A stretch of 60,335 bases of DNA, taken from positions 1 through 60,335 of the forward strand of contig JAFGNZ010000007.1 in assembly GCA_016926755.1 (NCBI GenBank), read 5' to 3'. Below the pieces are notes generated by a model. The model had not been told where the DNA came from. It searched no databases and was given only the letters and a program-made list of their open reading frames with translations. Source of the DNA: Myxococcaceae bacterium. GTDB lineage: Bacteria; Myxococcota; Myxococcia; Myxococcales; Myxococcaceae. The translations under genes were made by a program, and so were the position numbers. The first letter of the stretch is position 1. Each line of letters starts with the position of its first letter. This document shows, one piece after another, positions 6,859 through 10,474 of this stretch.

Positions 6859-7434
6859 ATGAAGCTCATCTGCGGGCTGGGCAACCCCGGGCGCGAGTAC
6901 GAGCGCCACCGGCACAACATCGGGTTCATGGTGCTGGAGGCGCTGCTGCCGCGGGCGCGGGCGGAGCTGAACCAGGAGAAGTTCCAGGCGCGCGTGGGCC
7001 AGGGCACCCTGGGCGGCGAGCGCATCCTCTTCCTGGAGCCGCAGACGTACATGAACCTGTCGGGCCGCTCGCTGGCCGAGGCCGCGCGCTTCTACAAGGT
7101 GGCGGTGGAGGACATCCTCGTCATCCACGACGAGCTGGACCTGCCCTTTGGGCGGCTGCAGCTCAAGGCCGGAGGCGGGACGGGTGGGCACAACGGGCTC
7201 AAGAGCTCCGTGCAGTGCCTGGGGGCGGACGGCTTCATCCGCCTGCGCTTCGGCATCGGCAAGCCGGAGGGCCCCAACGCCAGGGAGCGCGTCGCCGGCT
7301 ACGTGCTCTCCAACTTCGATGACGGGGAGCGGCGCCAGCTCGAGGAGCTCATCGGCCGGGCCTCGGAGATGGCGGAGACGTGGGCGCGCGAGGGGCTGGC
7401 CACGGCGATGAACCGCTTCAACCGCAAGGCCTGA
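6859..7434 (+). CDS. pth: Peptidyl-tRNA hydrolase
   Basis: Releases tRNA from peptidyl-tRNA that drops off ribosomes. The 191-residue protein has the family landmarks [19 protein letters not shown] (Asn and catalytic His near residues 8-20), the conserved [14 protein letters not shown] near residues 93-106 and [11 protein letters not shown] near residues 109-119. I choose the ATG at 6859 because [11 protein letters not shown] is the standard N-terminus. The in-frame TTG at 6841 lies inside the terminator stem tail. It converges with the helical-repeat gene across a strong hairpin. Confidence 0.94.
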
Positions 7435-7513: not shown

Positions 7514-9568
7514 CTACCGGGCGCTCCGCCGCGCCGTGCGGCCATGGCTCTTGCGGCGAGCCGAGGGGCGCCGCACCGTCCGCGCCGCCTCGAGGGACGG
7601 GGCGCGGATGGGGGACAGGCGCGGCAGCTCCACCCTTGGGATGGTCGGGATGGGCTTCACGGGGAGGCTGATCACCGCCCCGGTCTTGAACTTCTGGGCG
7701 TAGGGCCGCAGCAGGTTCCCGTCCAGGCCGCGGCTGGACAGATCCTTGTACGCGGCCTCGTGCTGACCGAACTCCTCGAACCAGTACTCCTCGGCGATCA
7801 CCGCCTGCTGCTCGCGGTTGAACTTCTTCAGATCATTGCCACGATCCCGGAGCATGGCGTTGGTCACCGTGTAGCCCTCTTTGCCGAGCTGCGCCTCGAT
7901 GGCCTGGATCATGTAGACCGGGCCGTCCACCACGCCCTGCCAGACGTGGGCCAGCTCGTGGATGAGCGTCTTCATGTCGATCTTCGCCTTCGAGGAGAAG
8001 TTGATGACGTACATCGTCGTGAAGGGCCGCTGGCCGTTGACCAGGTTGATCAGGTCCGCGGGGATGGAGGCGACGGCGATCTTCACGCGGTCCAGATCGA
8101 TCGCGGTGCCGTAGACGCGGCGGGCCTGCCGCTTCTCCTCCGCCGTCATCTCCCGGTGTCCGCCCAGCACGTCCAGCAGGGTGGCGAGCGCCAGGCCCGC
8201 CACGCCGCCCGCGGTCTCCAGCGCCGCCTTCATGATGAGGAAGGGGCTCTTGCCCAGGGCGATGAGCCCCTGGAAGAAGCCCTTGCGGAACTGCTCGGCC
8301 ACGTGGGTGACGATGTCCGCCACCGCCCGGCCGAGCTGGAGCCCCGCGGCCAGCAGCCCCTCCAGCACCATGCGGAGGGTGCTGAGCTGATCCTTCATGA
8401 AGGCGATCAGGATGTCGGCGGCCTGGCGGAAGGCCTTGTAGGCGCCCACGACCAGCCGCTTGAGCGTCTGCCCCGTGAAGCGGGCGATCTCCTTGGCCAC
8501 CTCGGCCAGCTTCCTCCCGGCGAGCTGGAGCCCCTTGATGATCTGCTCCACGGCGCCCGCGGCCAGGTTGATCGCGCTGTCGATGATCTCCCGCACCTGT
8601 CGGCCGAGCTGGACGAGCGCGCGCACCGTGGCGTGGATGACGGAGGAGACCTGGCTGGCCACCGAGGAGAGGATCTGCGCCACCTTCCTGCCGGCCTTGA
8701 GCACCTCGTCGACGACCTCCTTGAGCGTGGTGGCCACCTGCTTCCCCGCCCAGGCCAGCACCTCGACCAGCGAGCGGCCCGCGTCCAGCACCCCGCGCAC
8801 GAACTTCCGCACCGCGGACACCCCCTTCTTGGCGGCCTCGGTGAGGATCTCGGCGACCTTGCGGCCGGCCGCGATCAGCCCCTCGACGAAGTCGGCGATC
8901 TTGGACGCGCTCCAGTTGATCACCTTGCCAATGGCGTCCACCAGGGACTTGCCCGCGGCCTTGAGCGCGTCGCCCACGGTCTTCACCGCCTTCTTGAACC
9001 AGTCGACGACCTTGCCGAAGAACTCGACCCCCGGTGCCTGCGCGCGCTCGGTCCGCAGCGCCTGGCCAGCCCGCTGGTACCACTCGGCCACGTCATCCAT
9101 GTCGCCGCCGGCCTCGAAGTAGTCCTTCATGAAGGCCTGGGCATCCTGCGGCGCCATGTCTCCAATGTTGTGGATGACGAGCGCGCCCTTGCCCTGCAGC
9201 CGGAACGCGCGGGTCATCATCTGCCGCTGCGACGTCCCGGACTGGCGGGCCCACTGCACCAGCGGCGCGGACTCCTGCTCGGCCTCCACGTCGTCGCGCC
9301 AGTTGGCGATCACCCCTCGGGTGAAGTTGAGGGCGCGTACCTGAGAGGACTGGAAGAGGTTCGCCACGCTCGGGGCGACCTGCGCCCGCTGGAGCCCCAG
9401 AGCGCGCACCTCGTCCCGGGCGGAGTCGGCCGTGTTCAGCCGCATCGTCGCCAGCTGTTGGGTGAGGGCGACGGGGACCTGCAGGCTGAGGGCCTCTGCG
9501 CCAGCGGGAGCCTTGCCGCGACGCTTGGACCTGGACTTGGCGACAGGGGTTTGTTTGGAAACGGGCAT
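7514..9568 (-). CDS. Large amphipathic 29-residue-repeat protein with C-terminal zincin-like HExxH motif
   Basis: A 684-residue protein with three parts. Residues 1-180 are a mixed N-terminal region beginning with a basic stretch and no signal peptide. Residues 205-436 are eight contiguous 29-residue repeats, each starting like AGRKVAEIL, with a ninth degenerate unit to 465. The unit is amphipathic and predicted fully helical. Residues about 480-630 hold HELAHVWQ (H537, E538, H541) and, about 45 residues later, REQQAVIAEEYWFEE, which could give a third zinc ligand. A Pro-rich, then Arg/Ser-rich tail ends the protein. The HEL(A/T)HVWQ plus EQQ...EE pattern recalls putative peptidase domains near Rhs/VgrG-type and toxin genes, but I cannot name a family securely. 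The ATG at 9568 is chosen for GGAGG nine bases upstream. It lies between pth and rpsF on the opposite strand, where these housekeeping genes are usually close, which suggests insertion. Confidence 0.8.
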   Translation of the reverse strand: MPVSKQTPVAKSRSKRRGKAPAGAEALSLQVPVALTQQLATMRLNTADSARDEVRALGLQRAQVAPSVANLFQSSQVRALNFTRGVIANWRDDVEAEQESAPLVQWARQSGTSQRQMMTRAFRLQGKGALVIHNIGDMAPQDAQAFMKDYFEAGGDMDDVAEWYQRAGQALRTERAQAPGVEFFGKVVDWFKKAVKTVGDALKAAGKSLVDAIGKVINWSASKIADFVEGLIAAGRKVAEILTEAAKKGVSAVRKFVRGVLDAGRSLVEVLAWAGKQVATTLKEVVDEVLKAGRKVAQILSSVASQVSSVIHATVRALVQLGRQVREIIDSAINLAAGAVEQIIKGLQLAGRKLAEVAKEIARFTGQTLKRLVVGAYKAFRQAADILIAFMKDQLSTLRMVLEGLLAAGLQLGRAVADIVTHVAEQFRKGFFQGLIALGKSPFLIMKAALETAGGVAGLALATLLDVLGGHREMTAEEKRQARRVYGTAIDLDRVKIAVASIPADLINLVNGQRPFTTMYVINFSSKAKIDMKTLIHELAHVWQGVVDGPVYMIQAIEAQLGKEGYTVTNAMLRDRGNDLKKFNREQQAVIAEEYWFEEFGQHEAAYKDLSSRGLDGNLLRPYAQKFKTGAVISLPVKPIPTIPRVELPRLSPIRAPSLEAARTVRRPSARRKSHGRTARRSAR
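8261..8956 (-). repeat. Eight 87-bp coding repeats (29 residues each)
   Basis: Protein residues 205-233, 234-262, 263-291, 292-320, 321-349, 350-378, 379-407 and 408-436 align without gaps at a period of exactly 29. Each unit has small-Gly-basic at positions 1-4, hydrophobics at 5, 8 and 9, and a hydrophobic cluster at the end. Nucleotide identity between units is low, so the duplications are old. Confidence 0.85.
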
Positions 9569-10000
9569 GACATGAACCTCCGGGATGTAGCCGTGGATGG
9601 AGCAGGCGCCGAGGCCTGGTCCCCTCCCAGCACCTCGCCGGCGGGAGACCTCGGACCCTTCAGCCAGGGCTGGAGTCCAGAGTCCTTGGATGTGACGGGC
9701 CTGAGCGAGCCAGCAGCCCCCCACCGGTGGCCTGCCCCCCCCCTCCCCGGCCAGGCCTGGAGCCCCCCAGCCTCCTCTCGCCTTGACTTGGGGGGAGGCC
9801 CCTCGTAGAAGGCCCCTTCCCTCCTGCCCCCGGTAGGCGGGGATGTTCTTTTCCATCTTCCCGTGTTCCGCACGGGACGAAGCGCGATGGTGACGGGCGC
9901 GCTGTTTTCCCGTCCCCGGCGACGGCCTTCTCAGGCTGGACGACCGTTTCCCCGCTCCCCGGATTGGCCGGGGGGCACTCGACCCCAAGGGGAGAGAAAC
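9569..10000. promoter_or_regulatory. 432-bp divergent promoter region of the repeat gene and rpsF; candidate rpsF promoter at 9783-9811
   Basis: No gene is supported here. On the + strand TTGACT (9783-9788), a 17-bp spacer and TAGAAG (9806-9811) form a plausible housekeeping promoter for rpsF-rpsR-rplI, leaving a leader of about 180 nt. The Shine-Dalgarno AAGGGGAGA (9988-9996) directly precedes rpsF. On the - strand GGAGG serves the repeat gene. Confidence 0.45.
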
Positions 10001-10474
10001 ATGGCTGAGACACAGGCCGCGACGCGGCTTCGTGAGTACGAGACCATCTTCCTGGTCAAGCCCGAGCTGACCGACGACAACGTGGACCGCCTCAAGGAGC
10101 GCGTCCGCGGCATCGTCACCCGCGAGGGTGGCAAGGTCATCCGCTTCACGGTGTGGGGCAAGAAGAAGACGCTGTACCCCATCGCCAAGCAGCCCCGCGC
10201 CATCTACGTGCACACCCATTACCTGGGCAGCGCGAAGATGGTGGCCGAGGTGGAGCGCAACCTGCGCAACCTCGACGAGGTGACGCGCTACCTGTCCGTG
10301 AAGCTGGCGGACGAGGTGGACCCCGAGAGCCGGCCGGTGCTCGAGGACGTGAAGATGGCGGGCGATGTCGACGAGACCCGCCCTGGCGCCCCCGCCGAGC
10401 GCGACACGCCCTTCCGTGGCGAGTCGGCCGACGAGGCCTCCGAGACCGAGGAGGAGGGCACCGAGGAGGCCTAA
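10001..10474 (+). CDS. rpsF: 30S ribosomal protein S6
   Basis: Partner of S18 in the small-subunit platform. Of 157 residues, the first roughly 105 are the S6 fold (REYETIFLVKPELTDD at residues 9-24, then KKKTLYPIAK and IYVHTHYLGS). The remaining roughly 50 form an acidic, Glu-rich tail ending ETEEEGTEEA. The ATG at 10001 has an AAGGGGAGA Shine-Dalgarno. An upstream in-frame extension to 9863 is rejected because it runs through the leader and is not S6-like. It is the first gene of rpsF-rpsR-rplI. Confidence 0.95.
   Translation: MAETQAATRLREYETIFLVKPELTDDNVDRLKERVRGIVTREGGKVIRFTVWGKKKTLYPIAKQPRAIYVHTHYLGSAKMVAEVERNLRNLDEVTRYLSVKLADEVDPESRPVLEDVKMAGDVDETRPGAPAERDTPFRGESADEASETEEEGTEEA

What the first reader, a model, noticed from the sequence alone, without database searches (positions are those of the whole stretch)
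7514..9568. 684-residue protein of eight 29-residue helical repeats with a C-terminal HELAHVWQ motif, inserted between pth and rpsF
Residues 205-436 are eight gapless 29-residue units (AGRKVAEIL-type start), 8 helical turns each, predicting a long amphipathic helix or solenoid able to bind membranes or make a rod. The C-terminal zincin-like motif (H537-E-L-A-H541) with an EQQ...EEYWFEE follow-up resembles putative peptidase domains known near Rhs/VgrG-type proteins. The combination reads like a delivery rod plus effector. Its reverse orientation inside a ribosomal protein neighbourhood and the lack of a signal peptide are notable.
Basis: partly seen in the sequence, partly recalled or inferred. 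Interest (0 to 1): 0.65.

Follow-up and report, generated by a model that had tools for sequence, protein, structure and literature searches.

The report
Rod-like repeat metallopeptidase, partner gene missing
A bacterial gene sitting between two housekeeping genes encodes a zinc-peptidase-like domain behind an unusually regular helical repeat array; some relatives, including ones in another phylum, come paired with a second protease-like gene that was not found in this genome, which suggests an undescribed two-protein system.

Summary
ORF 7514-9568(-) encodes 684 aa with eight gapless 29-residue units (205-436) and HELAH at 537-541, between pth and rpsF. Lag 29 dominates the repeats here and in relatives from two other phyla, with a hydrophobic stripe in phase over 232, 550 and 905 residues. 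One ortholog lacks exactly two units (58 residues). AlphaFold draws helices at low confidence, so the rod is inferred. No homolog with another C-terminus was found, which speaks against a polymorphic toxin; no injection-system gene was seen beside it. In five of nine loci the next gene encodes a homologous C25/gingipain-like protein with invariant His and Cys. It was not found in the window lineage; five congeners have an empty pth-rpsF site. Best explanation: a probably cytoplasmic rod-mounted metallopeptidase, in relatives one half of an undescribed two-protease cassette, here partnerless. Delivery, substrate and partner role are inferred.

The parts
7514..9568 (-). CDS, 684 aa: basic N-tail, helical N-domain, eight 29-residue repeats, linker, zinc-peptidase domain, basic C-tail
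   Evidence: full-length orthologs at 60-78% identity in 5 of 96 family genomes; dN/dS 0.38-0.50 among the three pth-rpsF copies
9577..9581 (-). Shine-Dalgarno GGAGG, 8 nt before the ATG at 9568
   Evidence: sequence read directly
8984..9481 (-). N-domain, residues 30-195, all-helical; FMKDYF...GG motif shared with the Acidobacteria and Bacteroidales relatives; no accepted Pfam match
   Evidence: AF2 pLDDT 69-90 in blocks from residue 31 on; 21 invariant columns in 8 sequences; no Pfam match over cut-off for the window member
8261..8956 (-). eight 29-residue units, residues 205-436; hydrophobic stripe at about 3.625 residues per turn, no proline
7679..8158 (-). VgrG2bC-ter-type metallopeptidase domain, residues 471-630
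   Evidence: profile match to 6h56 E 7.7e-21; 6h56_A Z 10.0 over 145 residues
7946..7960 (-). HExxH, H537-E538-L-A-H541 (two zinc ligands and catalytic Glu)
   Evidence: H537, E538, H541 invariant in 29 of 29
7811..7813 (-). E586 of FNREQQ, predicted third zinc ligand (equivalent of VgrG2b E983)
   Evidence: alignment to 6h56, ligand named in PMC6899460, invariant 29 of 29
6859..7434 (+). pth, flanking gene (convergent); only 79 bp between its end and the end of the CDS, no room for a partner or immunity gene
10001..10474 (+). rpsF, flanking gene (divergent)

Best explanation
The gene encodes a zinc metallopeptidase of the VgrG2bC-ter (gluzincin) family mounted at the C-terminal end of a long, straight amphipathic-helix rod, with a helical N-domain at the other end. 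Shown: the domain order, the complete zinc-ligand set, the 29-residue periodicity with one in-phase hydrophobic stripe, a change of length by exactly two units, and, in relatives from two phyla, a directly adjacent co-oriented gene for a C25/gingipain-like protein. Inferred: (1) hydrophobic faces about 186 degrees wide drive side-by-side assembly into a straight multi-helix rod, so unit number acts as a ruler (about 35 nm here, 82 and 136 nm in relatives if fully extended); (2) neither protein has an evident signal peptide, so both act in the cytoplasm; (3) the partner activates or limits the metallopeptidase by cleavage, in the manner of caspase-gated effectors; (4) in the window lineage the rod-peptidase stands next to pth without its partner and is kept under selection, either with another regulator or in a changed role.
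For: Family. Periodicity and phase. Exact 58-residue (2x29) difference in an intact ortholog, G005. Same architecture in an Acidobacteria contig (930 aa) and two Bacteroidales MAGs (1314 aa each). Partner: adjacent in 5 of 9 loci (gaps of 12, 12 and 15 bp; twice an 8-bp overlap; the two Bacteroidales loci are close relatives of each other); Bacteroidales and family partners are homologous (27% over 188 aa, E 2e-21 for that single comparison), His167 and Cys201 invariant in 5 of 5, Pfam Peptidase_C25 as best match in 5 of 5 but below its cut-off. In 195 genomes of the phylum the partner is strong in 3, all three directly beside this gene. The gene is kept without partner in 3 genomes at dN/dS 0.38-0.50.
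Against: AlphaFold did not give a confident repeat arrangement (mostly pLDDT 32-62) and the partner model is unusable (mean pLDDT 46). The 99-degree peak alone is not specific: two weakly matching stretches without lag 29 also peak at 99.2 degrees. Partner matches to PorU/gingipains in the PDB are not significant (E 0.33-1.4). In 4 of 9 loci there is no adjacent partner and none was found in those genomes (Acidobacteria completeness unknown). Characterised VgrG2bC-ter acts in the periplasm after T6SS delivery (abstract), and 11 of 11 checked genomes have a T6SS gene, so secretion is not excluded. Signal peptides were judged by eye only.
Confidence: 0.42

Rival explanations
1. It is a T6SS cargo effector: the N-domain and rod load the protein on a spike or tube and the peptidase is toxic in the periplasm of target cells, as for VgrG2b.
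For: Domain family of a proven T6SS toxin; TssC present in 11 of 11 genomes checked including this one; in 4 of 15 cousin loci read, the peptidase gene lies 2 bp before a small putative lipoprotein gene, reminiscent of the PA0261 immunity family.
Against: No T6SS gene seen nearby and no immunity-like gene next to it (pth and rpsF flank it); T6SS presence does not separate holders from 5 congeners without the gene; the linked partner in relatives is a cytoplasmic-looking protease-like protein, not an envelope protein (by eye).
Confidence: 0.22
2. The repeat is a lipid- or granule-binding amphipathic helix (phasin/perilipin-like) that places the peptidase on a membrane, lipid droplet or PHB granule.
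For: Hydrophobic face about 186 degrees wide; Phasin_2 matches above Pfam's cut-off in the Bacteroidales and Acidobacteria proteins (39.4 and 26.8 against 24.9 bits). The reversed Bacteroidales repeat loses its Phasin_2 match, so that one is not wholly explained by pattern.
Against: Window protein is below the Phasin_2 cut-off (21.9 against 24.9 bits); reversed repeats still match lipid-binding-type models, more weakly on Phasin_2 (window 0.0037 against 0.0002; Bacteroidales reversed: Senescence 1.4e-6, Phasin 1.1e-4, ApoLp-III 2.4e-4, Perilipin 0.0057); a strict register over up to 905 residues is more than lipid binding needs (inference).
Confidence: 0.2
3. Polymorphic toxin or Rhs-like system: the rod is a shared delivery part with exchangeable C-terminal toxins.
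For: Long repeats followed by an enzyme domain; the peptidase domain occurs behind many different N-termini in the window's family.
Against: All 6 of 6 confident N-domain holders in 195 genomes of the phylum, and the 3 found outside, end in the same peptidase. A repeat-only search of 96 genomes found the array in the same 6 plus two weak matches (E 1e-4 and 7.6e-4), whose stretches lack lag 29 and, in the part held, an HExxH.
Confidence: 0.05
4. Degenerate orphan: a selfish or decaying insertion between pth and rpsF with no present function.
For: Empty site in 5 of 7 genomes of the genus; partner not found; rather high dN/dS of 0.68 in one repeat comparison.
Against: Open frame and complete active site kept in three genomes; whole-gene dN/dS 0.38-0.50.
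Confidence: 0.11

Closest known systems
VgrG2b C-terminal effector domain, PDB 6H56 (PMC6899460)
   Same: HExxH plus third glutamate ligand, HVWQ context and EQQ motif; fold Z 10.0; profile E 7.7e-21
   Different: There fused to a VgrG spike with a periplasmic immunity protein PA0261; here behind a 29-residue repeat array and a new N-domain, without VgrG or PAAR part or an adjacent immunity gene
Pfam eCIS_core / DUF4157 (PF13699)
   Same: 21 of 29 family members match it, best E 8.4e-7
   Different: The window protein itself is not matched; no eCIS gene seen alongside; in eCIS toxins DUF4157 lies at the N-terminus of the toxin (PMC8213781 passages), here the peptidase is C-terminal
ZorA cytoplasmic rod of Zorya defence (PMC11890865, passages)
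   Same: Long amphipathic helical segment; the window and Bacteroidales proteins hit ZorA models in tail positions (8.4e-6, 1.8e-12)
   Different: Reversed repeats hit ZorA models too, more weakly (3.7e-5, 1e-9, and 4.4e-4 for the Acidobacteria one, which has no forward hit), so mostly pattern, not shown ancestry; no MotA/TolQ match in the window protein
Bacterial gasdermin with caspase-like protease (recalled; reviews only in the listing)
   Same: An adjacent caspase-clan-like protease beside a putative effector
   Different: Effector here is a metallopeptidase with a helical array; activation by cleavage is only inferred
Phage tail tape-measure proteins
   Same: Helical arrays of variable length; weak tblastn hits of the Bacteroidales protein (19 of 20 listed phage rows named tape measure)
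   Different: About 20-22% identity, window protein has no phage hit, no tail genes seen nearby, carries a peptidase and a conserved N-domain

Membership tests
VgrG2bC-ter gluzincin family | HExxH zinc motif | tested here: met
   H537, E538, H541 invariant in 29 of 29
VgrG2bC-ter gluzincin family | third zinc ligand Glu (E983 in VgrG2b) | tested here: met
   E586 aligned to chain residue 218 = E983 by my count, invariant 29 of 29
VgrG2bC-ter gluzincin family | fold of 6H56 | tested here: met
   top row, Z 10.0, rmsd 4.0, 145 residues, 21% identity; profile E 7.7e-21
VgrG2bC-ter gluzincin family | zinc binding and activity | not testable with these tools
   needs protein
eCIS_core (PF13699) | match over the Pfam cut-off | tested here: not met
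   not listed for the window protein at E up to 10; 21 of 29 relatives match at E up to 1
T6SS effector-immunity pair | adjacent envelope immunity gene | tested here: not met
   neighbours are pth and rpsF
T6SS effector-immunity pair | T6SS-dependent secretion | not testable with these tools
   a T6SS gene is present in the genome
Polymorphic toxin | shared N-terminus with exchanged C-terminal toxins | tested here: not met
   no other C-terminus in the 9 loci found
ZorA | MotA/ExbB/TolQ membrane part | tested here: not met
   matches only in tail positions of the models, no such Pfam match in the window protein; reversed repeats also match
Phasin / apolipoprotein | homology beyond amphipathic pattern | tested here: inconclusive
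   window protein below cut-off, two relatives above it; reversed repeats match similar models, weaker on Phasin_2
Peptidase_C25 (partner gene in relatives) | catalytic His and Cys, profile match | tested here: inconclusive
   His167/Cys201 invariant 5 of 5; best Pfam match in all 5 but under cut-off; PDB E 0.33-1.4

The most novel reading that the evidence does not exclude
A previously undescribed two-gene system found in at least two phyla, with the rod gene in a third: a C25/caspase-clan-like protease controls a metallopeptidase mounted on a molecular ruler whose length is set by the number of 29-residue units (6, 8, roughly 20, roughly 32), acting inside the cell as a regulated proteolytic or cell-death device; the window carries a partner-less derivative.
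Probability: 0.3. Interest if true: 0.82.

Novelty: new variant of a known kind. Interest (0 to 1): 0.6.

Why it matters
It takes a peptidase domain known from T6SS spikes and related to the eCIS-associated DUF4157, whose role in eCIS is called elusive (PMC11297309 passages), and places it in a different setting: a regular 29-residue helical array and, in several relatives, a second protease-like gene directly downstream. The variable unit number gives a direct experiment on whether rod length sets function, and the partner gives a simple cleavage test. It also fits the suspicion in PMC6899460, drawn from Sphingomonadaceae, that this peptidase family has roles beyond T6SS (section 10).

Tried and rejected
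Polymorphic toxin: no support; the two weak repeat matches (L094, L095) were read afterwards: no lag 29 among the top four lags, no HExxH in the part held; in L094 the largest frame I list lies on the other strand. The same check showed that a 99.2-degree hydrophobic peak also occurs there, so the angle alone is ordinary for amphipathic helices and the 29-residue lag is the family's mark. ZorA homology: reversed repeats reach 3.7e-5, 1e-9 and 4.4e-4 against 8.4e-6, 1.8e-12 and no hit forward (forward were whole proteins, reversed only the repeat stretches), so I treat it as mostly pattern. Phasin: Pfam reversed control run for two of the three proteins only; it weakens but does not abolish the lipid-binding reading. 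Tape measure: hits at about 20% identity. Fold of the partner: AlphaFold with 5 sequences gave mean pLDDT 46, no fold search made. Fold of the N-domain: generic helical rows at Z about 6-9, not interpretable. Single-sequence scan of genome contigs found no relative; the alignment scan found three. Viral-contig scans with N-domain and partner: no relative. Plasmid and phage searches with the window protein: one weak plasmid hit (residues 472-601), no phage hit. In 393 genomes drawn from the order of a Bacteroidales holder only that holder matched. My notes call the G005 ortholog frameshifted; that was wrong, it is an intact frame lacking 58 residues.

Literature: '29-residue repeat' with 'amphipathic helix' gave 0 papers; metallopeptidase, gingipain, myxobacteria, helical repeats (3 of 4) gave 2, seen in listing only. 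These few searches do not show that it is unpublished. Papers: PMC6899460 abstract and sections 9, 10 and 12; PMC11297309, PMC8213781, PMC11890865 and PMC7159879 passages only; all others search listing only.

Full report
What is there. The reverse-strand ORF 7514-9568 encodes 684 residues without stops, starts at an ATG with GGAGG 8 nt upstream, and lies between pth (ends 7434) and rpsF (starts 10001), both on the other strand. Residues 205-436 are exactly eight units of 29 residues. In residues 186-455 lag 29 is the best of lags 3-79, mean BLOSUM62 score +0.75, while 500 shuffles never exceed -0.06 at any lag. No DNA-level tandem repeat was reported inside the gene. HELAH lies at 537-541.

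The genome. The window is contig C146 of a 9.59-Mb assembly. 'Phylum', 'family' and 'genus' below are the tool's groups around this genome.

The C-terminal domain. phmmer against the PDB gives the VgrG2b effector domain 6h56 at E 0.015-0.021; a profile of 29 members gives 7.7e-21; VIA-align of the AlphaFold model gives 6h56_A as the top row, Z 10.0, rmsd 4.0, 145 residues, 21% identity. PMC6899460 (section 9) names H935, E936, H939 and the third ligand E983. Counting along the alignment, chain residue 170 is H935, so E983 is chain residue 218, the Glu of NIEQQ, which aligns with E586 in FNREQQ. H537, E538, H541 and E586 are invariant in 29 of 29 aligned members. Pfam's eCIS_core matches 21 of the 29 but not the window protein. 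In 96 family genomes, this one included, 73 have a match to the window protein, most of them to the C-terminal part only; full-length orthologs are in 5 others.

The repeats. A Fourier analysis of hydrophobicity peaks at 99.3, 99.3 and 99.2 degrees in the window protein (232 residues), an Acidobacteria protein (550) and a Bacteroidales protein (905), that is 3.625-3.629 residues per turn; powers 57.5, 87.4 and 126.2 against maxima of 14.6, 9.1 and 10.4 in 200 shuffles each, the shuffles being scanned on a coarser 1-degree grid. In the two long arrays power drops to 1.0 and 6.5 at 100 degrees, so the phase is kept along the array; in the short window array resolution is lower (32.0 at 100 degrees). 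Prolines number 0, 2 and 3. Lag 29 is the best of lags 5-99 in all three. A caution: two unrelated weak matches without lag 29 also peak at 99.2 degrees over 220 residues, so the angle alone is common to amphipathic helices; the 29-residue lag and the long coherence are what mark this family. The hydrophobic face spans about 186 degrees. The ortholog in G005 is an intact 589-aa frame that lacks exactly 58 residues (two units) against both the window protein and G007. Unit numbers of roughly 20 and 32 in the long proteins are length divided by 29, not a count of recognised units; the 29-mer HMM recognises only some of them, several at chance level.

Rod or not. AlphaFold with 29 sequences, of which only 5 have the array, gives mean pLDDT 63.6: 69-90 in ten-residue blocks over residues 31-210, 32-62 over most of the repeats, and 78-95 over most of the peptidase domain with a weak stretch (38-52) at 501-530. 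The repeats are drawn as helices of 19-42 residues, but their arrangement is not predicted with confidence. A straight rod is my inference from the unbroken register. The lengths of 35, 82 and 136 nm assume 1.5 A per residue.

Pattern matches. NCBIfam and PADLOC ZorA models and Pfam Phasin_2 match the repeats. Reversed repeat sequences match ZorA models at 3.7e-5, 1e-9 and 4.4e-4, against 8.4e-6, 1.8e-12 and no hit for the forward proteins. In Pfam the reversed window repeat matches Phasin_2 at 0.0037 (forward 0.0002); the reversed Bacteroidales repeat has no Phasin_2 match (forward 7.5e-10) but matches Senescence at 1.4e-6, Phasin at 1.1e-4 and ApoLp-III at 2.4e-4. So amphipathic pattern explains most, not provably all, of these hits. 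The ZorA rod, modelled as a pentameric helix bundle (PMC11890865 passages), remains a fair physical analogy.

Relatives in other phyla. An alignment scan of genome contigs gave three loci: L097 (record titled uncultured Acidobacteria) and L098, L099 (Bacteroidales MAGs, close relatives of each other). Each has one long ORF (930, 1314 and 1314 aa) with the N-domain, a longer array and the peptidase with HELTHVWQ and FNxEQQ. The N-domain has 21 invariant columns in 8 sequences and no Pfam match over cut-off in the window member. In 195 phylum genomes the N-domain is in 6, all in the window's family (a seventh, weak single-sequence hit, G146 at 6e-4, is not recovered by the profile). In 393 genomes drawn from the Bacteroidales holder's order only that holder matches.

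The partner. In G007, G032 and G005 the next gene, same strand, 12, 12 and 15 bp downstream, encodes 291 aa. In both Bacteroidales loci the next gene overlaps by 8 bp and encodes 285 aa. The two groups are homologous (27% over 188 residues). His167 in GHG and Cys201 are invariant in 5 of 5, the His/Cys layout of gingipain-type proteases (recalled); Pfam Peptidase_C25 is the best match in all five, always below its cut-off; PDB matches to PorU and gingipains are not significant. In 195 phylum genomes only those three have a strong match, plus one weak match in a 710-aa frame. Counting all nine loci: adjacent partner in 5, no partner found in the genome in 4 (G000, G040, G042 and the Acidobacteria genome). 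In one search all first-look candidates were scored for G000 and G042 but 25 of 36 for G040, so that absence is a little weaker.

The insertion. G000, G040 and G042 carry the gene between pth and rpsF; five congeners (G036-G039, G041) have the two genes 271-282 bp apart with nothing between. dN/dS for the whole gene is 0.39, 0.50 and 0.38 among the three copies and 0.35 between the two partnered orthologs G007 and G032: the gene is maintained without its partner, if perhaps more loosely.

Delivery. TssC is found in 11 of 11 genomes checked, holders and non-holders alike, so a T6SS exists but does not track the gene. No contractile-system gene stands out among the predicted neighbours, which I judged by reading their starts; Pfam was run on selected neighbours only. 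By eye, neither the rod proteins nor the partners begin with a signal peptide. By contrast, in 4 of the 15 cousin loci read (L039-L053) the peptidase gene is followed after 2 bp by a gene for a 134-136-aa protein with a lipobox-like start (L041-L044), which recalls the envelope immunity proteins of the VgrG2b family (PMC6899460 section 12); homology to those was not tested. The rod proteins therefore look like a separate branch with a different partner.

Mechanism. I put most weight on an intracellular rod-mounted metallopeptidase, controlled in relatives by the adjacent protease-like protein and partnerless in this lineage. Anatomy, family and linkage are shown; rod assembly, compartment, control by the partner and substrate are inferred. 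Secretion by T6SS and lipid binding are live rivals.

Noticed in passing
L041:9082-10457, L042:8606-9981, L043:8989-10517, L044:8600-10035: VgrG2bC-ter-like proteins (320-371 aa) followed after 2 bp by genes for 134-136-aa putative lipoproteins that look alike and have no Pfam match; candidate effector-immunity pairs in the window's family.
   Followed up: partly
L039:16900-17547(-) and L040:9021-9977(+), window's own genome: Two further, shorter VgrG2bC-ter-type paralogs (HELVHVWQ, HEMGHVWQ) without the repeat array.
   Followed up: partly
L023:556-2112 and L050:8356-9663: Family members with an extra N-terminal segment bearing EEAGHHLD, possibly a second zincin-like motif, ahead of the C-terminal HExxH domain.
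   Followed up: no
L049:8468-9604 and L049:10584-11867: Two successive genes for proteins with the same peptidase domain behind basic helical segments in a small genome (G084).
   Followed up: no
G000 contigs C241, C139, C189, C38, C263, C369, C330: Ten eCIS_core (PF13699) matches in the window's genome, eight strong and two weak (the two weak are the paralogs named above); the surroundings of the strong ones were not read.
   Followed up: no
L098:3683-5200, L099:4163-5635: An AAA ATPase-like gene (ATPase_2/DUF234 in L099) precedes the rod gene in both Bacteroidales loci; linkage to the system unknown.
   Followed up: no
L094 and L095, around 1501-2160: Amphipathic-looking open frames with a 99.2-degree hydrophobic peak and lags 91/18 instead of 29; in L094 a long helical-looking frame lies on the opposite strand, so the matching frame may be its antisense shadow.
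   Followed up: partly
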